DNA of 64,000 nucleotides, from NCBI GenBank assembly GCA_905221615.1, contig CAJNDT010004935.1, forward strand, positions 424,501-488,500, given 5' to 3'. Shown here one piece after another: positions 7,641 to 62,969 of this stretch. The stretch is from Symbiodinium sp. CCMP2592. Its lineage: Eukaryota > Sar > Dinophyceae > Suessiales > Symbiodiniaceae. A model generated the notes under the pieces. It did no database searches. It saw only the letters and a list, made by a program, of their open reading frames with translations, and was not told where the DNA came from. Both the position numbers and the translations under genes were made by a program. Each line of letters opens with the position of its first letter. Position 1 is the first letter of the stretch.

Positions 7641-8470
7641 TAGAGAGCTTGAGAAACAGGAAAGCCGCTGGAAATTGGATGAAGACCTGGAGAACTAGAG
7701 AAGTTGACAACGAGCTGCAAACCACTCGCTTCAGAGACAATGTGAAACAGACAGCCGACCCGAAGAAAGGACAACGAGCAGAAGACAAAGAAGGTCCGAA
7801 AGGGAACCAGCGTTGCCGAACAGAATTAAGTTCGACAAACACGTTCACAGTACTGTAAAGCATTAGTAGAGAAATGGATAGCGAGAAGCAAAGCACTCCC
7901 AAGGCACTATAGAATCTGCGAAGGAGGCCTCGGAAGAGATTGGCGACCGTTTGGAAGAGATCCGTGGCCTTTCAAATTTTGCGAACAGTGAATAGAGCAT
8001 TTCGACGGAGCAGAGAACCGGCTTCATGGGAGAAGAGAGTTTGAGAGAAAAGAGGAGCAAAAAGCTCCAAAAATGACTTGAAGACTTTGAGAACGAGTGG
8101 CAAAACGCTTGAAAAGGAGCAGACACACAAAATCGATCAAGAAGCACGAGCAAACCGCTCGAAACGGACTGCAGAACCAGAGGGACATGTGCAAACCGCT
8201 AGAAGTTCTCAAAAGTCGTGAATCACTGGCAAATCGCTCTACAGACGCTGGAGACTTTCTCGGAAACTAAGCATCCGAAAAGGACTAGAGAGAACTTGCG
8301 AAAGAGCCCCAAAGCAACTGGAGCACCTGTGAAACAGGTGCGAGCCTGTTGAGAACGACAAGGGAAATTCAGAGGATCAAAGAGCTCGAAACAGATTAGA
8401 TTGGAGAGCTTGAAGAGGAGCACATTGCTCGAAGGGGACTAAGGTGAAGCTCGCAAAAGGGGCTGGGAAA
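7640..8470. repeat. Purine-rich degenerate repeat region
   Basis: The plus strand is A/G-rich. It repeatedly carries variants of GCAAACCGCTCGAAAC spaced irregularly (for example near 7718, 8098, 8150, 8190 and 8228), mixed with GAGCTTGAGAA-like pieces. No frame stays open over the region. It looks like an old, diverged tandem repeat; the unit length is not clear by eye. Confidence 0.4.
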
Positions 8471-8599: not shown

Positions 8600-8772
8600 A
8601 CTAGTACCCGTACAAGTACTGTACTAGTAGTACGACGACCACTACTACTACTACTACTACCACCACTACTAGCTACTAGTTACTAGTACTACTGCTACTA
8701 CTGCTACTACTGCCGCTGCCTCTACTAGTGCTGTTACTACTACCACTACCACTACCACTACCACCACCTACA
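8600..8772. repeat. (ACT)n/(ACC)n array left of LINE element 1
   Basis: CTA and CCA triplets ending about 70 bp before the first in-frame ATG of the LINE. A similar array begins directly after the LINE at 15784. Confidence 0.9.
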
Positions 8773-9774: not shown

Positions 9775-10386
9775 ATGCACAACACACAAACACTCTCCTC
9801 CCTTGTGGTCACGCCTAAGCAGACCCCTCTGACTAAAGCCACCACACGGAGACCCCTGCCTTTCCAACATGATCCGTACATTGTCACCTATAACATCGGA
9901 GGTGCGGCTGGCAGTCTGTACGACGAGCTCCGCCTTTGGATGGAAGAGGTCCAGCCGTCCATCTTGTTCTTGCAAGAATCGCATTGGAAGCAGTCAAGCA
10001 CATTCCAGAATGGTTCATTTCATGCAATTTCTTCTGCAGGGGGAGGTAGCCACGCGGGAATCGTTACTTTTGTAAACAAGCGAATAGCCGATGCTGACAG
10101 TATCTGTTTTAATGAGCTAGTTCCTGGGCGGCTACTCCATGTTAGAATCTTCTGTAAGAAGCAAATATGGGATACCTTCAATGTTTACCAGGTTCCTTGG
10201 AAACGTCAAAATGCTGAGTCCACCAACAAAGAAGCCCGCCGTCCCGTTTGGTCTGCGCTAGACAAGGCCGTCGCAGCCAGTCCTCTCCACAACAAGCTTG
10301 TGATTGGAGGGGATTTCAACACAGTCATGCCTCTCTCGGCACTCGTCACGGGTCCAAATTTCTATAATCCATCCCAACAGGGCTGA
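9775..10386 (+). pseudogene. LINE element 1 AP endonuclease, N-terminal two thirds
   Basis: The frame shows endonuclease/exonuclease/phosphatase-fold signatures: VTYNIGG (strand 1 with the metal-site Asn), LFLQESHW (catalytic Glu region), HAGIVTFVNKRI, and VIGGDFNT (the GDFN metal-binding motif). This enzyme nicks target DNA to prime reverse transcription. The frame ends with a stop at 10384-10386; the remainder of the domain (SSVIDYLLTRSA, then GGGLHKPVAV) continues in the next frame from about 10370. A one-base frameshift near 10375 therefore splits the domain. Confidence 0.8.
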
Positions 10387-13300
10387 AACTGACGCTCACC
10401 GATTTCTCCAGATTGCGGAAAGCCACTGCCTCATCACTCTGAACACGTGTTCGGGCCCTGACATGACATTTCAAGGACCTCAGGGTAGCAGCGTCATTGA
10501 CTATCTTCTCACCCGCAGCGCGCAAGCCACGGGCGGCAGCAAGCAGGCACGCACCATCGACTGCCCGGTGGGCAAGCACAGAGGCGGCGGACTGCACAAA
10601 CCAGTCGCTGTACACGTCCCCTTCAGGGTGTGGAAATACAGAGCCCCTGCACCCCCCGCACCGACTTGGTGTGAAAGTGCTCTGCAACAGGCAGCCCTAG
10701 AGGATTCCCCTACTGACCGTGCCTGGCGGGACGATGTTACTGAGCAGATTGCCACCGTGCCTGCGGTAGACCGCGCCGGTGTACAGCATGTATTGCACAC
10801 AGTAACCTGCACATACTTCCCAAAAGCTCGCGTATCTGAACGGGTAGCCCCTTGGCAAAGTGATCTGGTGCAAACACCCACAAGGCGACTTTGGCTGTTG
10901 CGCAGTCATCTCGACGGTATGCCTACCCAGACCCTTCCTCAACTGTTTGCTTTTTGGCGCAAAGCGGCCGAAGTCCGCAAGCTCGCCCGGGAATGTCGCA
11001 AAGCAAGCCGCACGGCCAGACGTATCAAATTATTGCACCAGTTGGAACTAGCAGAGGAAGCTAGCGCGCACAACCGCAGCCGGGAGCTCTTCCGCATTGT
11101 AAAGCAACTAGCGCCCAAATCGGTCAAACAGAGATTGCAACTTCGGGACTCCGCGGGCCAGCTTCTAAACCACAAACAGGGCCTGGAGGCCCTGCGCAAG
11201 TACTGCCTCCAAACCTTCGCTAAAACCAAGACCCAGCCCAGGGCCACCCTCCCCCTCACGCAGTGCCCCTTCACACGCGACGACTACAAGTCCGCGCTCG
11301 CGCGCGGTGCTCATCACAAGGCGGTTCCCCGCGAGCACGCGCCGGTCCTCGCATGGCAATTAGCTGGGGACGCAGTGGTAGAGTCTGGCCACGCAGCTGT
11401 CCTGTTCTGGTGGGGTCAGGGTGCCTTCCCGGCTTCACCGCCAGACTGGACGAATGGAGATCTGGTGTGGGTTCGTAAACCCAACAAAGCACCCACGCAC
11501 CCATCGCTGCTTAGGCCCCTCTGCATTTTAGGTGTGGAAGCCAAGACGGTAGCCATAATGATTCGAGACAAAATCACCCCTTTAGCCGAAAAATTCTTGA
11601 ACTCCATCCCACAATATGCTTATCTTAGAGGCAGAACGGTAATGCATAGCATAGCCTATGTCCTGCAACACTGTCGCACAGCATGCGCGAGAATCTCTGC
11701 CTTCTCCCCCAACATGCATCGGAAAAGAGCGGGTGCACAAACAGCCGAAGCAACAGAGGGATTTGGTGCACTCCAAGTTGCACTGGATCTTAGCAAAGCT
11801 TTCGACTCCCTAGACAGAGAGTTGATACAAGAGGCTTTGCTGGAAGCTGGTGTTCCCCCAGACTTGGTGCAAATCACCATCCAGCTCCTTTCCTCTACCA
11901 CGTACCGTCTCATTGTTGGTGATCAGCGCGAGACCGTCACCACGACAAACGGAATTCGCCAAGGATGCCCGCTGTCGCCAGTGTTGTGGTCCTTAGCGTC
12001 AGGAATCATTTACAAGAAGTTTCAGTCCCGTCTGGACAGTGAAGCGTGTAATGCCATAACTCTTTTTGCCGACGACCATCATGTTTGGTTTCAGTTTACC
12101 TCCCCGCGAGGATTCCACCACGCATTACGAGAACTCGGAACTCTCATGTGCGTGCTCACCGACGCAGGCCTTAATGTCAATGCCGACAAATCCGTTGCAC
12201 TGCTAGAAGTACGTGGAAACAAGCTTCGCAAGGCCGTGAGGCAACATCAGAGCAAAACGGCACAGGGGTGGCAGTTGAGGGTCCCGATAGGCAAATGTAG
12301 GACTGTAAACATACCGATTCAACAGCAGGCAAAATACCTCGGAATATTTATTTCCTACAGAAACTTCGAGGACAAAACCATAGAGAATAACATTCGAAAG
12401 GCTAAGGCTCGTTTCTCACAGCTCAGGAAGGTGCTGACTAGCAAAAGCAGCCTCTCAGTCTCTGCTAGGGCACGGCTGTGGAAGGCCTGCCTGCAACCGG
12501 TCTTCATGTACGCTCTCCATGCAGTAGGCATGACTGACCACGGAGCTTACCTACTCCATGTCGCCATTGTCAAACAGCTCCATGCAATAACAAACAGCCA
12601 AGCTTTTCTCACAAAAGAGAGCACCCAGGAGCTGATGGGCCGCATCGGGGTCGAACCGCCGGTGGCCTACTTGGAGCGCATGGCAAACAACCTTGCTGCT
12701 GAACTGAAGCTCTGCCCTGCAGCACTGCCGCTCGCTACTGCTCCGAGTGTCGCGGAGCACCTGGGGCATGCGCTACTCACAATTTCGGCCCTGAGGCAGC
12801 ATCAGATGCCGCCGCCACGGAGTGATGGGCAAGCTGTGGACCCCAGCGACTCTTGTGTTTGTAGCAACTGTGGCATGCAATTCAGCTGCTTAAAAGCCCT
12901 GAGGACTCACCGACGCCTTAAGCACAAAATCAAGTTAGATGCAACTAAACTCGAAGCCAGGCGCTGTTCAGTGGACGGCATGCCGCAGTGCCGTTACTGC
13001 CTATCCAGCTTCCCTCGTTGGTATGATCTTGAAAAGCATGTTAAACTACTGGCATGCAAAGGCCTGGTAGCGGCTGACGCGGCCCTGCAGGAACCAACAA
13101 GCTGCACCACTAGGAACTCTGACCAGCCTGCGGTCTCGCCGCGCTGGATGCTCCAACATGCTGTTGAACTCATCCAGGGTGCCCATTTAGGAGACATAGA
13201 CAGACCGTGGCACCTGAAGAAGATCTTAGAGTATGGCACAAACAAACAAGATATGAGTAGCTTTTGCAGTGTGTGTGGGCAGTGGGTGGCCAGGGCCGCT

Positions 13301-13438
13301 TCCCTCAAGACTCACTGGCAGCGTCAGCACCCAAAAGAGTGGAAGCATTATCAGGTAGAAAGAAGCACAGCTGCTTGTAAAACGAGCGGCCAGGTTCCCT
13401 GGAAGCACTGGGCACAGTGCGTGCCTGTTCTGCGGTAG
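10370..13438 (+). pseudogene. LINE element 1 endonuclease C-end, reverse transcriptase and zinc fingers
   Basis: One frame runs open for about 3 kb. It completes the endonuclease (VIDYLLTRS), then carries RT blocks: LRPLCILGVEAKT, ALDLSKAFDSLD (motif A Asp), GIRQGCPLSPVLW (motif B), and LFADDHHVWFQ (motif C, FADD in place of YADD). Thumb-like sequence (KYLGIFISY) follows. The C-terminal part has C2H2-type fingers: CVCSNCGMQF...H...H, CRYCLSSF, and CSVCGQWVARAASLKTHWQRQH. The polymerase makes cDNA from element RNA at the nicked target. The frame ends at 13436-13438, but the next knuckle (CLFCGRDD...QHRNTC) lies in another frame directly after, so a second frameshift occurred near 13410. Two Asp residues of motif C are kept. 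Confidence 0.85.
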
Positions 13439-13551
13439 AGACGATGTGAGCAACATTGTTCAACACCGCAACACTTGCGCCACCGCCTTTCAAGCTGCCT
13501 GCTTTCAACTTTTGGCCTGCCCGGCAGCGGCTAGGGAAGAAGACGTAGCAT

Positions 13552-14600
13552 ATGTCCGGGGGCATGGACTTAACGCACCAGATGGCAACTACCTGGGGCT
13601 CAATGTTTGGGTGGACCCCCGAAGGGCAGATCCCCCCCTCAACAGCGAACTCCCCGTACTACCAGCAGCCTGCACAGAGCGTGAACTTTCGCAGCCCGCT
13701 GCAGAAACGGCAGCGCCAGGCGACGGAGTACCCGGACGAAGAGATGATCCCGGAGGCGGAGTACACGTGGCCGAGCATGCAGCCGAGGTACCCGCGAGAC
13801 ACGACAGCTTTTGGGACTTCCTATCCGGGGGCAGAGCCGAAGGACATGATGCATCTCCTGAGACTCACGGCGAAGGCCTTGATCAACCACGAGGATGCAG
13901 TGAACCTCACAAGAATGGATCGAGGCTACGTATTGTTCCTGGGGACCCAGGGCAATACAATCCTGCCGGCTATGATAGCACTCTCGGGGAAATGGAATCA
14001 GGAAGGCGGCCTTGTGCACGGCAAGCGCGTCCCACTGCGAGCCATTTTAGCCCAAAGCTTCTTTGCAGAACTCAAGCAACGCTTGACAGCTGTGGGTTCC
14101 GATCCCAGCGGACTCACAGAGCAGCAGAGGACGGCGCTCCTCTCGAACGGCGAGTGGATCATGAAGTGGTGCTCGGTCAAAGCCGAGATGATTGCCGATC
14201 CCAGTCGACCAAGCATGAGCCTCGCTACAACCCTCCAACTCGTCGACAGCATCTGTCAGGCAGTGACAAACCCGGAGACTGTCTTGAAGTTCAACGCAAA
14301 GCCACCAGGGCTCACGGCTGCGCCCAAGAACGGACGCATCACCATGCTCTTGGAGATCTCCCAGCGCTTCCCCCAACTCATCGAAGCAATGAGAATGCTA
14401 GCGGGCCACTCGTGCCTCACGCTACTCAATGCCCAAGTGAAGTACGAATCCATGATGAGATCCCCAGCGGCTCAAGAGCTCCATCAGGCTTTCTTCTCAG
14501 GCAAGGGTGCAGCCAAGGGAAAGGGCCAGAACAGGAACGGCCAGGGCAGAGGACACTCAGCTGCAGTGCAGGGATCACAGCTGCTGGCTCATCCAGACCA
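13552..14600 (+). CDS. LINE element 1 middle domain of unknown function
   Basis: A clean frame of about 350 residues lies between the zinc knuckle and the USP domain. It has a Gln/Pro-rich start (SPYYQQPAQSVNF), then a helical, Leu/Ala-rich core with MMHLLRLTAKALINHED, GYVLFLGTQGN, LRAILAQSFFAELKQRL and IMKWCSVKAEM. It ends in a Gly/Lys-rich tail (GKGAAKGKGQNRNGQGRG) suited to nucleic-acid contact. I do not recognise the domain. It is absent from element 2, where the knuckle leads to the USP domain after about 75 residues. It could be an acquired gag-like or nucleic-acid-binding module. The frame differs from its neighbours on both sides, so it is joined to them only if frameshifts are repaired or the parts are spliced. 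Confidence 0.5.
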
Positions 14601-15511
14601 TGCCACGCATCACCATCCCGCTCTGAGGCTTCCGAGCGAGACAGTAGGGCCCCTGACTTGCCTACTTGGCTCTTCCCGAAGGCTACGGCCGGAAACTCAA
14701 AGAATTTCAGGATCCTGCGGCAAGGCCTTCTGCGACGCAAGCTCTACAATCCCCATAATTATTGTTACATCAATGCTGTTGTCTCCAGCCTTATGTGGGC
14801 TATCCTTAATACTCCCTCTCCTTGTACTCTTGAACTAAAGCAAGAAGTTTGGCCGGTCATCCTGCAGTACCACGAGCAGCAAACTAATAACCCCAACCCC
14901 CTAAACCTGACACAGGCCCTAAGAACCATCCTAACCGGTTGGCCCCACCTAGGACGTCAACATGATGCAGGTGAGTTCTTAGCGTTTGTAGGTAAAGCTG
15001 TCCTCCAACGAAGCTTCCTAGGCAGGTGGGAGGCAAGAGTCAGGGAGCACGGCGCAGTGAAGAAGGAACTACAGACAGGCCAACACACCTCCTGCCTGCA
15101 GACACGCAAGACTTGACCCTGCTGGTTCACCAGTGGTCCCAGCAACGAGGTCTGCAAGCGCTCCAGCAAGCCCCAAAACTCCTTGCCCTTGCTTTGCCCA
15201 GATTCCAAGAGTCCGATAACGGTATTCTAAAAAGAAATGACCCGCATTATGTCCTGCAGCCGCACCTCGCATTCCCCACCTTTGACGACGATGCGTTTAG
15301 TTTGACCTCGACCAACTTTCAACTCCAAGCCGTCATCATCCATGACGGGCCGAGCATCCACCAAGGTCACTACAGATGCGTGCTGCACGACAGCAGTGAC
15401 ACGTGGTGGTTGAAGGATGACAATCGCTCAGCCGTAAAGCTGGAATTTACGGATACACTCGAGTTGTGTAGAGAAAGGTCCTTTGTACTCTTGTACACTA
15501 GAGCTGACTAA
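14600..15511 (+). pseudogene. LINE element 1 USP-type (peptidase C19-like) deubiquitinase domain, frameshifted
   Basis: Two adjacent frames together give a whole USP-like domain. The first (to about 15060) has the Cys box as LYNPHNYCYINAVVSSL, matching the canonical L-x-N-x-G-N-T-C-Y-x-N spacing with Asn and Cys kept, and then GRQHDAGEFLAFV (the QQD-x-x-E-F box). The second (about 15060-15511) has LLALALPRF, then the His box HQGHYRCVLHDSSDTWWLKDD, with His, Trp and the Asp pair kept, and ends SFVLLYTRAD before the stop. USP enzymes remove ubiquitin from proteins. One frameshift near 15060 separates the boxes in this copy. The alignment to element 2 continues through the shift (WEARV to WEVRD; LPADTQD to LPAPTTG), which supports a damaged single domain. 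Confidence 0.75.
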
Positions 15512-15783: not shown

Positions 15784-16022
15784 GAGTGAGCACTACCACC
15801 ACCGGTACCACTACCGCCCCCACTACCACTACCGCTACCGCTACCACTACCGCTACGACTACCACTACTACTTCTACTACTTCTACTACTTCTACTACTA
15901 CTACTACAACTACTACGACACTGATATCACTATCACTATTACTATTACTACTACATACTACTACTACGACGACTACTACTACACCACTGCTCCTCCTCCT
16001 ACTACTACTACTACTACTACTG
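15784..16022. repeat. (ACT)n/(ACC)n array right of LINE element 1
   Basis: CAC TAC-type triplets with TTC TAC and ATC ACT variants. It begins where the LINE 3' tail ends. Confidence 0.9.
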
Positions 16023-51660: not shown

Positions 51661-51792
51661 GACCTCTCCCTCAGCACCTAAACAAACCATGACAGTGTTA
51701 AACGACCGAGAATATCTCCAAAACAAAAGCAGCAGAGCTCGACTACTACGACTGCAACAAGCACAATACTACAAGCTCTCGTCTAGTATTGT

Positions 51793-51830
51793 TGCTACTA
51801 CTACTACCACTACTACTACTAATACTACTA
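51793..51830. repeat. (ACT)n microsatellite
   Basis: GCTACTACTACTACCACTAC-type array, interrupted by CCA and AATA. It lies on the 3' side of LINE element 2. Confidence 0.9.
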
Positions 51831-52378
51831 TTTTATTGGACGCTGAGCGAGCGGGCTCTGCTCATTGCGGGCGTGTGAGACTGCCTTTGCACCTGAACAA
51901 AGGTCTGAGAGCAGAAATGCTAAGGGCCTGGGCCTGAAAGCGCTGAAACAGGCTACCGTGAAGAGAGCTACCCTACAAGCTACCTCAAAAGCCGGTTCAT
52001 GCGTCTCAGGCGTGGGTGAGAAACCCTCCGTCACCCTCAGTGTGGACTATGGCGTCCCATGTCCACGGACCGATGATTGATGAGCCGTACCCCCTCGGGA
52101 CCGTCACTCAGAGTGCCTGTTGCGTGGCGTCCCACTCATGGTCACTCTCAATCAAAGGCGATGGGCCGTAAGGTCGCAAAGGTGATGAGCATGTGGAACG
52201 GCTGCTAGTGCTGTTATCTGAGGCAGCTCCGCTTTTGTGGGCAAGCAGATTGCATCGGTGAACGATGTGGCACACCCTGGCGGTAAGCACACTGTGCCTA
52301 ATAAGGCTAACCTTATTCGTAAGAGGCGTACTCCCCTCCAGAGGCCAGGCTTGCCGGCAATGGCTTGGGGGCCTCGGA

Positions 52379-52413
52379 CAACCCCCCATTCTCGAGCCGA
52401 GAATGGGGGGTTG
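52379..52413. repeat. Perfect hairpin 1 (16-bp stem, 3-nt loop)
   Basis: CAACCCCCCATTCTCG (52379-52394) and its exact inverse complement (52398-52413) flank the loop AGC. Confidence 0.9.
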
Positions 52414-52439
52414 CAAAACCTTGATTTTTAGGCCTCGGA

Positions 52440-52474
52440 CAAACCCCCCTTCTCGAGCCGAGAATGGGGGTTTG
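52440..52474. repeat. Hairpin 2, tandem near-copy of hairpin 1
   Basis: CAAACCCCCCTTCTCG (52440-52455), loop AGC, then CGAGAATGGGGGTTTG. Fifteen of 16 stem positions pair. Both hairpins are preceded by GGCCTCGGA. They lie about 280 bp beyond the USP stop codon, so they may be in the 3' tail of LINE element 2. Confidence 0.85.
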
Positions 52475-52751
52475 TAAAGCCGATTTCAGCCATTGGTCAG
52501 CTGTGTTGCTGACAGGCGTTGCCTTTCTGGGAAAGCAGCGAGCGTTGCCCGACTAGCATGACAGGTGTAGGCCGCTATTGCACACAAACGCTGAGTAGTG
52601 GAGCTACGTCAGCTGTACGACTTGAGCAGCAAAACTGAACAACAGCGTTCCTGCTCCCTGCCGTGTAGGCAGGTCGGTCCCACAGAGCCAGTAGGTCGCC
52701 CCCTTCCTGCAAGGGGAAGTAGGGGCCCCTGGCCTCAGGGGAACCCTCAGC

Positions 52752-54191
52752 TTAATCATCTGAAACTTGGACTGGCATAGGGCCAGCCTCCGCTGTGCGC
52801 GGTATTGAACCAAGTCGCACGAACAGCACATAGCAGCCGTGGCGTGCCTGCCTGAGATCTGAATCTGAGGCCTGAACCGACGGACGACCATCGTCCGTGC
52901 TGAGCCAAGGTTGATCGGGGTTGCTCCTCCAGAGGGAGCGATAATGTCCACTGTGCGGGGTGTCACCTATGTGGAAGATACAGGACTGAACCCATCCTTT
53001 CTCTAGTTGTACGGAGCCCGTCGGGGCCCACTGCGAGAGCTGAAGGGGGTGGTGCAGACCAGTGACAGCATAGCTGAGCTTGCGGCCTTCAACAAATCGC
53101 GCCACTGTGAGAACCACCAGTCGTTGCTGCCCTCGAAAGGCGGTGTGCACCGGCTGGCCAGACCACCGAGAGAGCAGCTCCTGAAGTGCATGGGATCCAC
53201 CTGTCGTTGGAGCTGGCAGCAAAGCGAGCGGACCTCCCGCATCGGTGACCTCAGTAGTGTTTACATCCCTGACTTCCCAGGGTCGTGCAATCGGAAAGGC
53301 GGTAATGCCTGCAAATAAGGCCACTAGAAACTCCGAAGCATCTTGTTGTTGGCCATCATAGCGCCAAGTGGGAGTAAGATGGCGAAGCGTGAAAGAGGCA
53401 GTCAGGGTGAAAGGAGAACCAGAGACAGAATCAGCCACTTCCTGATGGAGGGAGGTGCTTGCCCCTCCGTGCTCCAGCAAGATGCACGTCGGCACCAGGG
53501 CCGAAAGCGTTGAGTTAACATAGCAGTAGTTGGAGATGTTGCGCAGCGAGCGAGGAGCAGCGAGCGCGCCGTCCTTTGATTCTACTGTCCCTGACTTCGG
53601 TGGCAGGGGGCCTGCAGGCGTTGCCTGGCGAGTCTGGGGCGTTGCTCCAACAGCGGTGGTATCGTCCCGTGTGGGTGCGTTGCCTTGTGTCGTGCCAACC
53701 GCTGGCATGTACCTGCGTAACGGTCCGCCCTGGCAGCGGGAAAGTGCATGAACCAAGTCATAAAACAGAATCTGAAAAAGGATCGGACATTGTGCCGGAT
53801 GCTGCCTCTTATCCGTAACAGGCTTGCGGCAGCACGGGCAAGGCATGCCCTTGACAAGGGTCAGGCCTGATTTGCTGCTCTGAGTTGCAGCTGTAGCGCC
53901 ATGAGCCGCCCATTCAGGTTTGTGGGCCTGCCGGATGTGAGACTTGAGCTTGGTATTGTCCGGGGTCCAGAACCCACACAGCAAGCAATGTGACATAAGG
54001 TCCTGAGACTCATCAGATCGTCCGAGCTCCACAGCCGTGTGTGTTGTCAGAGTGTCATGCAAGCGCTGCTGCCTGGGATGCAATCTGGGCTGATGCTGCG
54101 AATCCAAGGGAGGGTGCGCCGCGTCATCCAGCTCCTGTAGCCTAGCTGGCTCCGAGCAGGCACCTGATAGCAAGTGGTCCTTAGGCCGCAC
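52752..54191 (-). CDS. LINE element 2 second ORF: zinc fingers plus USP-type deubiquitinase-like domain (479 aa)
   Basis: Residues 69-92 form a C2H2-like finger (CLLCGFW...HIRQAH), and 118-135 a C-P-C-C...H...C knuckle. A linker follows, then from about 215 a USP (peptidase C19-like) domain. Its Cys box is LRNISNYCYVNSTLSAL (catalytic Cys223, Asn218 as in L-x-N-x-G-N-T-C-Y), followed by the GQQQDASEFLVAL box (281-293), LVVLTVARF, the His box HSGHYRSLW (His416) with W429 and Asp433-434, and the end strand GCYVLFVRL. All triad positions are present. USPs cleave ubiquitin from proteins; here the enzyme could protect the element's proteins or RNP, which is inference. The ORF opens at GTG without an ATG near the overlap, so expression probably needs frameshifting or reinitiation from the upstream ORF, or a small indel has broken one fused ORF. 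Confidence 0.82.
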   Translation of the reverse strand: MRPKDHLLSGACSEPARLQELDDAAHPPLDSQHQPRLHPRQQRLHDTLTTHTAVELGRSDESQDLMSHCLLCGFWTPDNTKLKSHIRQAHKPEWAAHGATAATQSSKSGLTLVKGMPCPCCRKPVTDKRQHPAQCPILFQILFYDLVHALSRCQGGPLRRYMPAVGTTQGNAPTRDDTTAVGATPQTRQATPAGPLPPKSGTVESKDGALAAPRSLRNISNYCYVNSTLSALVPTCILLEHGGASTSLHQEVADSVSGSPFTLTASFTLRHLTPTWRYDGQQQDASEFLVALFAGITAFPIARPWEVRDVNTTEVTDAGGPLALLPAPTTGGSHALQELLSRWSGQPVHTAFRGQQRLVVLTVARFVEGRKLSYAVTGLHHPLQLSQWAPTGSVQLEKGWVQSCIFHIGDTPHSGHYRSLWRSNPDQPWLSTDDGRPSVQASDSDLRQARHGCYVLFVRLGSIPRTAEAGPMPVQVSDD

Positions 54192-57100
54192 ACTTGGGGA
54201 GCCCTCCTACAGAGAGGGTGTGGGAGAAGCCTCGAGGGACATATCTGATGACCGAGCCTGGATGCTTGCGGGCCTGGTGGGTGCGAAGACCGACCTCAGT
54301 GTCGAAGGCCTGAGCACACGTCGGGCACACGAAGGACGGGGGGGCCTCCTGCTGTGATGTGTCCTTAGAAAGTTGCTGCAGAACGTCTGCATAACTAGTA
54401 GAGAGTGCCTCCGCCTGGAGAAGCGCGCGCTGGGTTAAAGAGATGTCCCCCGCAGGAGTTTTCCGCCGTCGAGCACCTAAGCGCTTGACACGATTGGCCT
54501 GTCGCGCCTGCAGCTTACGGACAGGGTCCATGATCTCATGGGAGGCATAGAGGTCAGCCGTGGATATGTGTGTCAGGTGCGCTGGCTTGTTCAGGACAGC
54601 TCGAATTTTGCGAGCGTGCCAAGCCCGCAACAGTTTAGCTGTCTCTAGGGTCAAGCCCACATCCACCAATCCAGAGGCTACTGTGGCCCAGACAGTGCTA
54701 TGCCAAATGTGCAACCGCGATGCAGGCCCCGCCGTTCGTCTGTTGTGAACGAAGCGGCGTACCTGCTGCAATTTCACATTGCCCTCCTGCAACCGGAACT
54801 TGAGAGTAGCCTTCTCGAAGTTGGAGTAGGAGAGCATGACGCCGAGATACTTAAAGGACGTCACCAGCGGAAAGCCCTCGTGAGACTTGGACTCTCCCAG
54901 TCTCCACATCTTATGGCGGGTTCCGTCAGGCGCGGTGCGCCAATAAGTGTGCTTGGAGATGGCGCGTTGCGCCTGTTGGCCCTCGAGTTTGACCATAACA
55001 GTGCATTTTGCACCGTTGACAGCAAATCCATGGCGACGGACCAACTGCAACAATTGCTCAATCAGAGCATGAGCGCGATCCAGGTCCTCCATTGAGTGGA
55101 TGTCACGGTGAACCGTAAGGTCATCTGCGTAGCCCGTGAGGTAGTCCACCACGGCTCGAACCCCAACAAGAGCTATGAGCTCCCGGAAGATGGTGCCCGT
55201 AAGCATGGAAAAACGTGTGGGGGCAAGCTTACACCCCTGTTTAATGCCCGCAGTGGACTGGACCGTGTCCTTTTCACCCTGGGTGCGAAACGTGTAAGCA
55301 CTGCCAGCATGCAATGAGGCAACTAGGTCAATGAGGTCTTGCGGGACTCCCGCTTCCTGCAGTGTGCTAAGCAAGTCTGTTCTGCTCACCATGTCAAAGG
55401 CTTGTGACAAGTCTAGTGCAAAGCAGATGCCACCTACTAGCTGGGGACGAGTTCGTCCCGAGTGAAGCTGATGCCTGGTTCGTCGGGCCTCCTGGCAGTT
55501 ATTGCGTACCTGAGTGACATGACCAACGACCCTGCTCAAGGCATCTGAAAGACCGCGATGTGGCTGGTAGGCAAATTGTGGGAGACCCCGAAGATAGTCA
55601 GCCGTGTAGGGAGACAGCTGATCTCTACAAGCCCCCGCCAGGCCCTTGCCGTCTGGTCGAATGATGCCGAGGGGACGTAGATTGCCAGGCTTCGTGGCCG
55701 GCTTGTTAGGCTTTGGGATAAAACACAAGTCAGCATCCTTTAAGGGCGGCTGAAGTACCTCAGCAGCCGGCAATGGGCGTTGCCCCCGAGATTGCAGCGA
55801 TGCTGCTAGCGCCTCTCCCGCAGCCGCCGAGCAGAGCCGCCAGGCAGCCGCCGGAGCAGAGCCTTGCGGTACCGCCTTGTGCGGTCTGATGGAGCCTATG
55901 TGCTTGGCCAGCAGACCAGCCGGGATTTCCGGCAGCGAGTCCACCTGGTGTGCGAGTGGCGGATGTCTGGCAAAGACCTGTTCCACGTGGTCTCTAAGCA
56001 GGCGGAGCTCAGAGGTAGAGTCCAACAGCAGACCATCCGGTCCCTGAAGCTGTGCCTTAGTTTGGGGTTCCCAAGGTCGGAGCTTCTTTAAGGTCTTATG
56101 TGCGATGTAGGAATCGTGTCTGGCACACGCCTCATCGACCTCAGCCTGGAAAGCTCGGTGTCGTTCCTTCTTGGCTAAGTAGAGAGCCTGCTTATGCCAT
56201 CGATTCAGGTCCTCCAAAGACTGATCTAGGTCGGATAAGGTGGTTATGGAGTCCTCATGCAAAGAACGAATATGAGCGACTCGACTCCACATTCGCAGCG
56301 TCGCACGGTGCTGAGCAGTTTCAGGAGCTTGCTGAGGCCGTGGTTTGGGGAAAAACAGTGCAGAGGCCTCCAGCAGTACCTGATTAACTTCATCAGGCGT
56401 GTGAGTCCGAGAGGACAGACGCTGGCCCACCCAGTCTTGCATGCGACCGGCTATTGGCAGACCTGAACGGACAGCCGTCTCTAGAGCTTCCTTATGAAAG
56501 GTCGTGGAAGGACAAGTAGGCTTTGGCAGATTCCAGTGCTGGGTGGGTCTGAGTTGAGCCAAGACTGGAAGGTGGCCGCCCCTCTTCCATTTGCCGAGCT
56601 GAAGATCCTTGCACGGCCGAGACTGCTTTGCCAGGCCCTTGGCCGAGGCTTCTGAAGTGAGCAGGAAGTCAATTTGTGATCCCTGACCATTCAGGAAGAA
56701 AGTGTGACCTGCACCACTAGACCATGTGTTAAGAGCTACCAACCGATGGGAGGAGACTAAGGCTTGGAACGATTCATCCTGCATCTGAGTTTGCTCTGGC
56801 TTGGTGCTACACTGACCTACCAGACCCTCCTGCGGGGTCAGTCGAGCATTAAAGTCTCCTGCCAAGAGAAAAGTATCTCGCGCTGGAATGGCCCGTATCG
56901 CAGCCGACAGATCGCGGAGCAGGTGTGAGCGGTCATCCTTGTTCTGCTGTGGAGTCTTCTTAGAAGACCAGGCATGTTGGTAAACCGCTAGTACATGCAC
57001 ACGAGCCCCAAGCCACGGGAAGATGACCTGAATGAGCCTTCCCCGGCGTTGCTCGCGCCATCTTATCTTCTTCTTGTCTATCTGCGGAGAGAGAAGAACC

Positions 57101-57642
57101 ATGACGCCGTCCGCTCGGCTTGTGTCGTGAACAGCCGGCTGCGTGGCAGCGCCTTGCTTGGGGCGTTGCCCTGAAGTGGCTTTACCTTTAGGTGCTCGAG
57201 CAGCCCCTTTTGTGGCGGAGCTTACGCAGTGCCAGCCTTCGACATCAAATTCTGCTGTCTCACTCCAGTGGGTTTCCTGAAGGACAAGAATGTCACAGAC
57301 TGACTTGGCCTCCGTGCGAAGCCATGTCTTCACTTCTGCCCATTGTTGCATGCCAAGGTGCCCTGCATTCCAGGAAAGAACACGAAGAGACTTGCTGGCA
57401 CGACCGCCTCTCGGGCGCGAGCGGAAACTGGCGGAGAAACCTGAGGGACCTGAAGGAGAAATCGTGGAGCTAGGCTGCACTGGGAGGGGGGGAGGGGAGG
57501 GCGGGGTGAGTCCACTGCGACGCAGATGTTCAGGCGTCAACGTACCATTCCGGTACGGGATGCTTTCTTGTGTTCTATGAACCTTATTGCAAGCATTGCG
57601 AAAGGCCTTCTTGCGAATGCTCTCAAATGAATGCTGGTGCAT
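54181..57642 (-). CDS. LINE element 2 endonuclease/reverse transcriptase (1153 aa)
   Basis: Intact ATG-started ORF. A Pro/Ser-rich N terminus (1-85) precedes the AP endonuclease (about 86-360): VLSWNAGH, LVLQETHWS, LLAGDFNARL, SQIDFLLTS and RGGHLPVL. The linker is helical and basic. The RT spans about 590-900: LCFIPKPNKP, LRPLGIIRPDGKG, ALDLSQAFDMV (motif A), GIKQGCKLAPTRF (motif B), GYADDLTVH (motif C) and FKYLGVMLSY. A C2H2 finger (CPTCAQAF...HQARKH) lies at 1106-1127, and the end is GLPKCAA. All catalytic Asp residues and endonuclease residues are present, so target-primed reverse transcription is plausible. In element 1 the equivalent of GLPKC continues directly as GMPQCRYC, which suggests the stop here may result from a frameshift into the following USP ORF. 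Confidence 0.92.
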   Translation of the reverse strand: MHQHSFESIRKKAFRNACNKVHRTQESIPYRNGTLTPEHLRRSGLTPPSPPPLPVQPSSTISPSGPSGFSASFRSRPRGGRASKSLRVLSWNAGHLGMQQWAEVKTWLRTEAKSVCDILVLQETHWSETAEFDVEGWHCVSSATKGAARAPKGKATSGQRPKQGAATQPAVHDTSRADGVMVLLSPQIDKKKIRWREQRRGRLIQVIFPWLGARVHVLAVYQHAWSSKKTPQQNKDDRSHLLRDLSAAIRAIPARDTFLLAGDFNARLTPQEGLVGQCSTKPEQTQMQDESFQALVSSHRLVALNTWSSGAGHTFFLNGQGSQIDFLLTSEASAKGLAKQSRPCKDLQLGKWKRGGHLPVLAQLRPTQHWNLPKPTCPSTTFHKEALETAVRSGLPIAGRMQDWVGQRLSSRTHTPDEVNQVLLEASALFFPKPRPQQAPETAQHRATLRMWSRVAHIRSLHEDSITTLSDLDQSLEDLNRWHKQALYLAKKERHRAFQAEVDEACARHDSYIAHKTLKKLRPWEPQTKAQLQGPDGLLLDSTSELRLLRDHVEQVFARHPPLAHQVDSLPEIPAGLLAKHIGSIRPHKAVPQGSAPAAAWRLCSAAAGEALAASLQSRGQRPLPAAEVLQPPLKDADLCFIPKPNKPATKPGNLRPLGIIRPDGKGLAGACRDQLSPYTADYLRGLPQFAYQPHRGLSDALSRVVGHVTQVRNNCQEARRTRHQLHSGRTRPQLVGGICFALDLSQAFDMVSRTDLLSTLQEAGVPQDLIDLVASLHAGSAYTFRTQGEKDTVQSTAGIKQGCKLAPTRFSMLTGTIFRELIALVGVRAVVDYLTGYADDLTVHRDIHSMEDLDRAHALIEQLLQLVRRHGFAVNGAKCTVMVKLEGQQAQRAISKHTYWRTAPDGTRHKMWRLGESKSHEGFPLVTSFKYLGVMLSYSNFEKATLKFRLQEGNVKLQQVRRFVHNRRTAGPASRLHIWHSTVWATVASGLVDVGLTLETAKLLRAWHARKIRAVLNKPAHLTHISTADLYASHEIMDPVRKLQARQANRVKRLGARRRKTPAGDISLTQRALLQAEALSTSYADVLQQLSKDTSQQEAPPSFVCPTCAQAFDTEVGLRTHQARKHPGSVIRYVPRGFSHTLSVGGLPKCAA

Positions 57643-57940
57643 TGGCGATTGCGCCGTCCGCTAGTTTCGCCGGAAAGAGAGAACTCGAACCGACTCCTTT
57701 CACCCTGCGGAAAAGGTGAAAACCACTACCGCTTACCTCATGCCAAGGTTGTATAACTGCAGACAGAGGCCCGGGAATTGGGACCCGGTAGATCACAGCG
57801 ACACGCGGCTCCGGGAACAGCTATGGCTCAGTAAGAGGACGGTCCCTTAAGCTTCGCAGAAGGGGCACGTTGCGAGCCTCTAGCGTTGGTACCCAGAGCC
57901 TTGTTAGCAAAGCTACACAGCCTACTGTGATCCATAGCGG

Positions 57941-58010
57941 CTACTACTACTACTACAACTACAACAACAACAACAACTACTACTACTACTACTGCTACTA
58001 CTACTACTAT
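57941..58010. repeat. (ACT)n/(ACA)n microsatellite
   Basis: CTACTACTAC with a CAACAA block. It lies on the 5' side of LINE element 2, about 300 bp from its first ATG. Confidence 0.9.
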
Positions 58011-58039
58011 GGCTATGCTATTGCTACTACTGCCACTAC

Positions 58040-59080
58040 CGCTACCACCACGACCACTGCCACGACCTGCTGGCACAGCTTAAGCGCTGCTGCTTCTGCT
58101 TCTGCTATTGTTACTCTACTGCCACAGCCACTGCTACTCCTACTCCTGCTCTGCCCCCTCTCCTACTCCTACAGCTGCTACTACGACTACGACTACTTAT
58201 ACTACGACGACGACTACACTCCTGTTGATGCTACTGCTACTGCTGCTGCCACAATCACTGCCACTGCCGCTGCATCTAATTCTGAGACTGATACCGAGAC
58301 CGACACTAATACTGGTACGAATACTACCACTAATGCCAGTACCTACTACTTCCACTACCTTACTTCCTACCTGCCTACTACTGCTATCGCTCCTATCCTT
58401 CATCATAATATTGGCCAGAGCACTGCCGTCTTCCAGAATTTGGAACCTGGGCTGTGGCTGGCAACCTTTTGGTGCTTCATTAATTTCGTCCGATGGGTTG
58501 AGGATTTCGGCACAGGACACGTGCTTATTACATCGGCCGCCCATGCTGCTAACTCTTGTTTGCCTTGCATCCTCGTAGTGCCACTATTGTCCGTTGCCGG
58601 CAAAACGGATACGCAGTGCTTACTCCGCTGAGTCGTGCCAGTACTGGTAGTCCTGACAGCATCCGGCCGGTTTACGTGCAGTACCTTCAGTGGCAAACTC
58701 CGGACACTTTACCTTGTTTTCAATCTAACTTGGAGCCCTGGACTCGAAAAATTGCCCTGACTTCACTACATTGAATAGCTATCTCTCCCTCTCTGTCCCG
58801 GTGTGAGTTCGGCGGCAAGTGACAATATCAGGCAGGCACGTAACGAGAAGCGGTCTTCCCCAAAAGCCTACAATTCAGGCGGGCATAGAGGCCCAAACTC
58901 CGAAGTCGGAAGCCAAGCGCCGACACGAGGCTCCTCCTTCTGCATGCCTTTGCTGCTACCCATGGGCGCACTCGATCGGATTGTGACTGCAGCTCCTGGA
59001 GTAAGCGGCGACCACCGTTTTCAATATTAGCAGTACTAGTACTGCTGCTGGTAGTCGTGCACGTGCTGCTGCTGCATACT
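58040..59080. other. Triplet-biased sequence grading into unique DNA; no gene recognised
   Basis: Degenerate CTG, CTA and ACT triplets continue to about 58360. The rest shows no supportable exon. Confidence 0.5.
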
Positions 59081-62104: not shown

Positions 62105-62410
62105 ACCTTGTGCTTTTTCTGGTGCTCGAGATTGTGCTCATGATTGTGCTTTTTCTGGTGCTCGAGATTGTGCTCATGATTGTGCTTTTTCTGGTGCTCC
62201 AGATTGTGCTCACGATTGTGCTTTTTCTGGTGCTCAAAATTGTGCTCATGATTGTGCTTTTTCTGGTGCTCCAGATTGTGCTCATGATTGTGCTTTTTCT
62301 GGTGCTCGAGATTGTGCTCATGCTTGTGCTTTTTCTGGTGTTCCAGATTGTGCTCATGATTGTGCTTTTTCTGGTGCTCAAGATTGTGCTCATGATTGTG
62401 CTTTTTGAAG
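62105..62410. repeat. 36-bp minisatellite, block 1 (about 8 units)
   Basis: The unit is CTTTTTCTGGTGCTCGAG plus ATTGTGCTCATGATTGTG. Units differ mainly at one triplet (CGAG, CCAG or CAAG). Because the unit is a multiple of three, four of the six frames stay open. Confidence 0.95.
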
Positions 62411-62487
62411 TAATTACAATTTAAACGCCAATGATTCGCCTCATGAACTCATACTTGCAGTCATGATGTTCGTCACATTGGGTATCA

Positions 62488-62748
62488 ATCCTTGTGCTTT
62501 TTCTGGTGCTCCAGATTGTGCTCATGATTGTGCTTTTTTGGGTGCTCCAGATTGTGCTCATGATTGTGCTTTTCTGGTGCTCGAGATTGTGCTCATGATT
62601 GTGCTTTTTCGGGTGCTCCAGATTGTGCTCATGATTGTGCTTTTTCTGGTGCTCGAGATTGTGCTCATGATTGTGCTTTTTCTGGTGCTCCAGATTGTGC
62701 TCATGATTGTGCTTTTTCTGGTGCTCGAGATTGTGCTCATGATTGTCC
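62488..62748. repeat. 36-bp minisatellite, block 2 (about 7 units)
   Basis: Same unit as block 1, with one or two single-base length changes near 62535-62575 that shift the frame. It is separated from block 1 by about 78 bp of unique DNA. Confidence 0.95.
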
Positions 62749-62969
62749 TTCCGGACTGCTTCGACGTGCAGCCCGCGCTTGCCAAGCTGCGGCCTGTGCT
62801 TCTTCTGGACAGACCCGGCAGCCGCGCGCCCCACCCCAAACTACCGAGAGCGAAACAGCCCGAGTTTGCGATTCCTGCGGGCCTAGCCTAGGCTTCTTCC
62901 GTACAGACCCGGAAACCCCAGGCCTAAACTCCGAACCCTCAACCTTCAGCCCCGCATCCGGACTCTGAC

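What the first reader, a model, noticed from the sequence alone, without database searches (positions are those of the whole stretch)
52752..54191. A LINE retrotransposon ORF carries a complete USP-type deubiquitinase domain
Seen: Cys box (LRNISNYCYVN), QQQDASEF box, and His/Asp box (HSGHYRSLW ... DD), in the order and spacing of peptidase C19, in the ORF directly after an intact endonuclease/RT ORF on the same strand. Known: some LINEs (Dualen/RandI type) encode OTU-type cysteine peptidases; I do not know of a described LINE clade with a USP. Inference: the element may deubiquitinate its own proteins to escape host proteasomal control.
Basis: partly seen in the sequence, partly recalled or inferred. 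Interest (0 to 1): 0.88.

Follow-up and report, generated by a model that had tools for sequence, protein, structure and literature searches.

The report
Retrotransposon carrying a ubiquitin-removing enzyme domain
A self-copying "jumping gene" (LINE), most likely from a dinoflagellate alga, carries at the end of its copying protein what looks like a complete ubiquitin-removing enzyme whose active-site residues are kept in related elements, which suggests a way for jumping genes to resist destruction by the cell.

The parts
51839..57936 (-). Element A, probable extent of the USP-bearing LINE (about 6.1 kb) between two (CTA/TAG)n arrays; ends not proven
   Evidence: sequence, arrays
54181..57642 (-). 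ORF with AP endonuclease, reverse transcriptase and one C2H2-type finger (1153 aa)
56647..57378 (-). AP-type endonuclease domain (PF03372, E 4.1e-13)
54835..55719 (-). reverse transcriptase domain (PF00078, E 3.5e-22; YADD motif)
   Evidence: sequence
54262..54327 (-). C2H2-type finger CPTC..H..H at the end of the RT ORF (Pfam matches below cut-off)
54181..54191 (-). frame junction: the RT frame stops and the USP frame continues; about 32 nt missing relative to relatives whose frame is continuous
52752..54191 (-). 479-aa ORF of the finding (484 aa stop to stop from 54206): two Zn-finger-like motifs, linker, USP domain
53787..53987 (-). two Zn-finger-like motifs (CLLC..H..H and CPCC..H..C), by pattern
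52803..53564 (-). USP (peptidase C19) domain, residues 215-468
53523..53540 (-). Cys box: N223 (oxyanion) to C228 (nucleophile)
53328..53351 (-). QQQDASEF box (residues 286-293)
52893..52946 (-). His box H421 to Asp D438
52379..52475 (-). 3' UTR: two tandem near-identical hairpins (16-17-bp stems); RNA fold of 52340-52500 z = -7.2
51783..51830 (.). (CTA)n array at the 3' side of element A
57941..58009 (.). (CTA)n array at the 5' side of element A
9880..10377 (+). Element B: AP endonuclease (frame 1)
10304..13438 (+). Element B: RT ORF with three C2H2-type fingers (frame 2); RT 27% identical to element A
13807..14526 (+). Element B: 'HED' domain (frame 1), also in other dinoflagellate LINE proteins
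   Evidence: E 1.3e-30
14733..15056 (+). Element B: N-terminal half of USP (NPHNYCYIN, RQHDAGEF), frame 3
15080..15439 (+). Element B: C-terminal half of USP (QGHYRC, WLKDDN), frame 2

Best explanation
The finding is a damaged copy of an APE-type non-LTR retrotransposon of a dinoflagellate LINE group whose single pol protein reads endonuclease - reverse transcriptase - C2H2 fingers - USP deubiquitinase. The USP is an inherited, maintained part of the element, not a chance neighbour. Most likely mechanism (inferred): LINE proteins act mainly on the RNA that encodes them, so a USP tethered to the RT removes ubiquitin that host ligases place on the RT itself and on other proteins of the particle, and so prolongs the life of the particle until target-primed reverse transcription is done. 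Shown here: domain, predicted fold, triad, fusion in relatives. Inferred: catalytic activity, substrate, benefit. The domain claim alone I hold at about 0.95; the protective mechanism at about 0.5.
Against: dN/dS not computed. Both window copies are damaged: element A has a frame-breaking deletion, element B is spread over three frames. The nearest RT relative, P0025 (72% identical, 264 member sequences), ends some 60 residues past the junction and holds no USP, so no full endonuclease-to-USP chain was found for the very nearest subfamily; the nearest chains are P0002 (from the RT thumb) and P0061 (from the RT). USP diverges faster than RT in nearer pairs (window A against P0028: RT 51%, USP 32%; P0050 against P0066: RT 45%, USP 28%). 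P0050 and P0066 are sisters in the RT tree but not in the USP tree (together in 6% of 200 bootstrap trees). Of the 14 non-redundant rows P0013 lacks the His box, P0002 the Asp box (both apparently by frame damage) and P0020 reads EN for DD. Of the 13 endonuclease-RT-USP chains, P0044, P0064 and P0067 hold only part of the USP and P0066 and P0125 depart in one motif each. Seven long LINE proteins have no USP match, so it is not essential in the whole group. No expression, activity or substrate data.
Confidence: 0.62

Rival explanations
1. The USP acts on host chromatin or repair proteins at the insertion site (for example removing ubiquitin from histones or sliding clamps) to ease target cutting or second-strand synthesis, rather than stabilising the element's own proteins.
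For: Finger patterns lie between RT and USP in the six relatives examined (P0028, P0031, P0048, P0050, P0061, P0066) and could place it on nucleic acid; the authors of PMC2836005 suggested a role of ubiquitin-type peptidases in repair during transposition (passage).
Against: Nothing here singles out a chromatin-type USP: the best structural matches are tied within 1 Z among USP30, USP46, USP12 and USP35. Dinoflagellate chromatin is poor in histones (recalled).
Confidence: 0.22
2. The USP is used as a polyprotein-processing protease that separates the RT from its C-terminal part, as cysteine proteases do in many viruses.
For: It sits at the C-terminal end of a long polyprotein in relatives. P0050 has one exact LRGG, between endonuclease and RT.
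Against: USPs cut after the ubiquitin tail LRGG (recalled). In the 11 proteins scanned, no site of the form [LIVM]RGG or LxGG lies between RT and USP; 2 of 11 have none at all, and the hits of the others lie in or before the RT or inside the USP itself.
Confidence: 0.05
3. Passenger domain: a USP was captured and is carried along without current function, decaying at its own rate.
For: USP identity is lower than RT identity in the nearer pairs; some LINE relatives lack it.
Against: Twelve invariant columns, most of the known active-site positions among them, across USPs that share 22-44% identity between lineages; open frames in a cluster of 104 member sequences (P0028); presence in several deep RT lineages.
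Confidence: 0.08
4. Artefact: a host USP gene or gene-model error lies next to a LINE by chance.
For: Many database relatives are automatic gene models, some clearly patched (for example P0012, P0067).
Against: The window itself shows the arrangement twice in raw DNA, in two elements with RTs 27% identical; single chains of 1543-1610 aa in relatives.
Confidence: 0.03

Closest known systems
SymbioLINE-Dnmt, LINEs of Symbiodinium with a cytosine methyltransferase in ORF1 (PMC5890265; section 6 and passages read)
   Same: Dinoflagellate APE-RT LINE that took up a regulatory enzyme, kept under purifying selection according to that paper; no poly-A tail
   Different: There the extra enzyme is a DNMT in an upstream ORF; here it is a USP at the C-terminal end of the RT protein. 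The words ubiquitin, UCH, peptidase and protease do not occur in the main text of that paper
[quoted passage not shown] passages read)
   Same: Non-LTR element with a peptidase of the ubiquitin/SUMO world on the RT protein
   Different: Ulp1 fold, N-terminal, restriction-like endonuclease; here USP fold, C-terminal, AP endonuclease
Dualen / RandI LINEs (APE plus RLE, and RNase H; PMC4640811 passages; green-algal host; the cysteine protease is recalled, original paper not held)
   Same: Algal non-LTR element with APE and, as recalled, a cysteine protease
   Different: No RNase H match was found here; the type of the Dualen protease was not checked
Ginger1, Mutator and Helitron DNA transposons with OTU or Ulp1 domains, and the Trichomonas vaginalis transposase_11-Peptidase C19 protein XP_001314237.1 (PMC2836005; passages read)
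   Same: Transposable-element proteins with ubiquitin-type peptidases; the Trichomonas protein is even a C19 enzyme
   Different: DNA transposons, not reverse-transcribing LINEs
Cellular and giant-virus USPs (USP30, USP46, USP12, USP21, USP14; Fadolivirus and Pithovirus USPs)
   Same: Predicted fold and triad
   Different: The 50 structural alignments shown give 13-24% identity; the LINE version aligns over about 230-255 residues and is fused to an RT

Membership tests
USP / peptidase C19 (Pfam UCH PF00443) | Profile match above the curated cut-off | tested here: met
   31.2 bits against 23.9; also P0028, P0048, P0050, P0066, P0125. Relatives that miss it: P0061 (21.4 bits) and P0031 (no UCH row at E 0.01)
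USP / peptidase C19 (Pfam UCH PF00443) | Catalytic Cys, His, Asp and oxyanion Asn in order | tested here: met
   N223, C228, H421, D438; aligned to USP14 C114/H435/D451 (C114 as catalytic residue is named in the title of 6lvs; the roles of the others are recalled)
USP / peptidase C19 (Pfam UCH PF00443) | USP fold | tested here: met
   [not shown]
USP / peptidase C19 (Pfam UCH PF00443) | Cleaves ubiquitin | not testable with these tools
   needs a biochemical assay
APE-type non-LTR retrotransposon (LINE) | AP-like endonuclease and RT in one ORF | tested here: met
   PF03372 and PF00078; family profile matches human LINE-1 ORF2p, E 8.3e-39
APE-type non-LTR retrotransposon (LINE) | Target-site duplication and defined 3' end | tested here: inconclusive
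   both sides are (CTA/TAG)n arrays, so a duplication cannot be read
APE-type non-LTR retrotransposon (LINE) | Multi-copy in the host genome | tested here: inconclusive
   own genome never reached (genome search, 13 unanswered calls); database clusters of 264 (P0025) and 104 (P0028) member sequences point to many copies in relatives
Dualen / RandI | RNase H domain | tested here: not met
   no RNase H row at E 1 in six window ORFs or at E 0.01 in six database relatives
Dualen / RandI | Restriction-like endonuclease as well as APE | tested here: inconclusive
   no such row, but no dedicated RLE model was used
SymbioLINE-Dnmt | Upstream ORF with a DNMT | tested here: inconclusive
   about 295 nt lie between the first ATG (57642) and the (CTA)n array (about 57937), too little for such an ORF if the element ends there, but the end is not proven and no DNMT search was run beyond it
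Ulp1-bearing NeSL/Utopia | N-terminal Ulp1-like protease | tested here: not met
   no Ulp1 row; the peptidase is C-terminal and of predicted USP fold

The most novel reading that the evidence does not exclude
USP is a hallmark enzyme of a large, old dinoflagellate LINE superclade (APE-RT-C2H2-USP, in some lineages with an additional ORF1p-like 'HED' domain): the first described case of a LINE carrying its own deubiquitinase as a counter-measure against ubiquitin-dependent restriction, acquired once before the deep RT lineages split and partly lost or moved since.
Probability: 0.42. Interest if true: 0.87.

Novelty: new variant of a known kind. Interest (0 to 1): 0.76.

Why it matters
Ubiquitination of LINE-1 proteins by host ligases is a reported restriction route in mammals (abstracts). 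A LINE group that carries its own deubiquitinase would be genetic evidence of the other side of that conflict. It adds USP to the DNMT already described in dinoflagellate LINEs (PMC5890265), and it gives a simple test: change one cysteine and measure RT half-life and insertion rate.

Tried and rejected
Rejected: a natural two-ORF arrangement with translational coupling. Across the junction the chain is continuous in P0002, P0015, P0016, P0017, P0018, P0021 and in P0025, P0026, P0028, P0031, P0048, P0050; P0020 lacks the junction stretch, and P0001, P0003, P0004 and P0008 begin just after it. So the overlap at 54181-54191 is read as damage. Rejected: chance ORF or neighbouring host gene (two elements in the window). 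Polyprotein processing: no LRGG-like site between RT and USP in 11 proteins scanned.

Literature: no LINE with a USP/C19 domain seen in the listings of searches (20 of 46 shown; 20 of 29; 15 of 27; 10 of 10; 15 of 156; 1 of 1; 15 of 50; 12 of 970; 10 of 229), nor in passages of PMC6338049, PMC5890265, PMC4640811, PMC3747384, PMC2836005. Only open-licence PMC papers are covered; Repbase reports and subscription papers were not checked.

Full report

Surroundings. The ORF upstream on the same strand (57642..54181) is an AP endonuclease (E 4.1e-13) and RT (E 3.5e-22) with a C2H2-type finger near its end. Its frame ends at 54181; the USP frame is open from 54206. In relatives the protein runs on through the next finger without a break; the window lacks about eleven residues there and the frame shifts. 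The element is probably about 6.1 kb, between two (CTA)n arrays, with a 0.9-kb 3' UTR that holds two tandem hairpins (z -7.2).

A second element. On the plus strand at 9880-15439 lies another LINE with endonuclease, RT, three fingers and a USP whose halves lie in frames 3 and 2. Its RT is 27% identical to that of element A. Its Cys box (NPHNYCYIN), RQHDAGEF box, QGHYRC and WLKDDN are present. Two such different elements in one 64-kb window suggest that the USP is common in this group.

Relatives. Three searches of a 5.8-billion-protein database gave 24 hits for the USP ORF, 28 for the RT ORF and 104 for an alignment of RT-to-USP stretches, 131 distinct proteins in all. Each search scored only the 7991-7998 candidates sharing most words. 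Precomputed Pfam shows UCH and RVT_1 together in 14 of these 131 (P0012, P0026, P0027, P0028, P0030, P0048, P0050, P0053, P0054, P0058, P0060, P0066, P0067, P0125). With my own USP profile, 51 of 137 sequences (131 proteins and six window pieces) match at E 0.001, and 30 of 112 RT-bearing sequences carry a USP match on the same chain, 13 with the endonuclease too; some are short or patched gene models (P0044, P0064, P0069, P0118). The nearest RT relative, P0025 (72%, 264 member sequences), crosses the junction but ends soon after it, without USP. Of the 104 hits, 18 bear an organism name: 17 are Symbiodinium and one a flatworm (Sparganum, E 1e-29, no UCH in its precomputed domains). The host of the window is therefore most likely a dinoflagellate; this is inference.

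Conservation. Seven full chains with endonuclease, RT and USP keep the four boxes. Among 26 near-complete USPs, 14 remain after an 80% cut; 12 of 231 columns are invariant, among them N223, C228, Q287, D289 and E292; His and Asp are missing in three rows, two of them apparently by frame damage. Between the lineages compared, USP identities are 22-44% and RT identities 24-60%; the two correlate (r 0.71, 21 non-independent pairs). At these distances a part without constraint would hardly keep the triad and an open frame; this is an argument, not a dN/dS test. USP is less conserved than RT in nearer pairs. The USP tree of 12 rows (P0002 and P0013 dropped for damaged ends) returns A-like and 28-like groups that also appear in the RT tree as far as rows are shared, which fits joint inheritance; P0050 and P0066, sisters in the RT tree, do not pair in the USP tree, which does not. 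USP occurs in the A/28/48 group, in the P0050/P0066 group, in element B and in P0125. Seven long proteins without a USP match end, wholly or in part, in another domain ('HED'); in element B and P0125 this domain lies before the USP, in P0050 after it. One origin is plausible but not shown.

Mechanism. LINE-1 ORF2p is ubiquitinated by TRIM41 and degraded, and ORF1p is polyubiquitylated through TEX19.1 and UBR2 (abstracts). Because LINE proteins prefer the RNA that encodes them (recalled), a USP fused to the RT would protect the very particle that encodes it. I hold this as the most likely role, at about one in two; action on chromatin or repair proteins is the main rival. No LRGG-like site lies between RT and USP in 11 proteins scanned, which speaks against self-processing.

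Known or new. Ubiquitin-type peptidases are known in transposable elements: Ulp1 in NeSL/Utopia LINEs, OTU and Ulp1 in Ginger and other DNA transposons, and a Peptidase C19 on a Trichomonas transposase. Dinoflagellate LINEs with a DNMT are known. In nine library searches with capped listings and the passages read I saw no LINE with a USP; the library is limited to open-licence papers. I file it as a new variant of a known kind: an APE-type LINE with a new accessory enzyme.

Limits. The genome of the window could not be reached in thirteen attempts, so copy number, intact copies and dN/dS in the host are unknown. No activity or expression data exist here.

Noticed in passing
window 8622-8761, 15791-16021, 51783-51830, 57941-58044: Both LINEs lie between (TAC/CTA)n arrays on each side. 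With six such arrays in the window, random placement puts a stretch of the same length as close to arrays on both sides in 0.5% of trials for each element. This suggests insertion into trinucleotide microsatellites, or arrays seeded by the elements; arrays and limits were chosen after seeing them.
   Followed up: partly
window 52379-52475 (minus strand): Two tandem hairpins with 16-17-bp stems in the 3' UTR of element A; their core sequence occurs nowhere else in the window. Could be the RNA signal for the RT.
   Followed up: partly
[not shown]
   Followed up: partly
P0097 (database protein, near its C-terminal end): A USP-like Cys box (NRSNLCYMNAS) in a decayed LINE protein whose RT is very close to that of P0098, which lacks a USP match: a likely USP relic.
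   Followed up: no
database names of P0069, P0082, P0090, P0086, P0100: Public records name three of these LINE proteins RXLR78, one cofG and one Trpt1; these look like mis-transferred names.
   Followed up: no
window 62108-62750: An 18-copy tandem repeat of a 36-nt unit.
   Followed up: no
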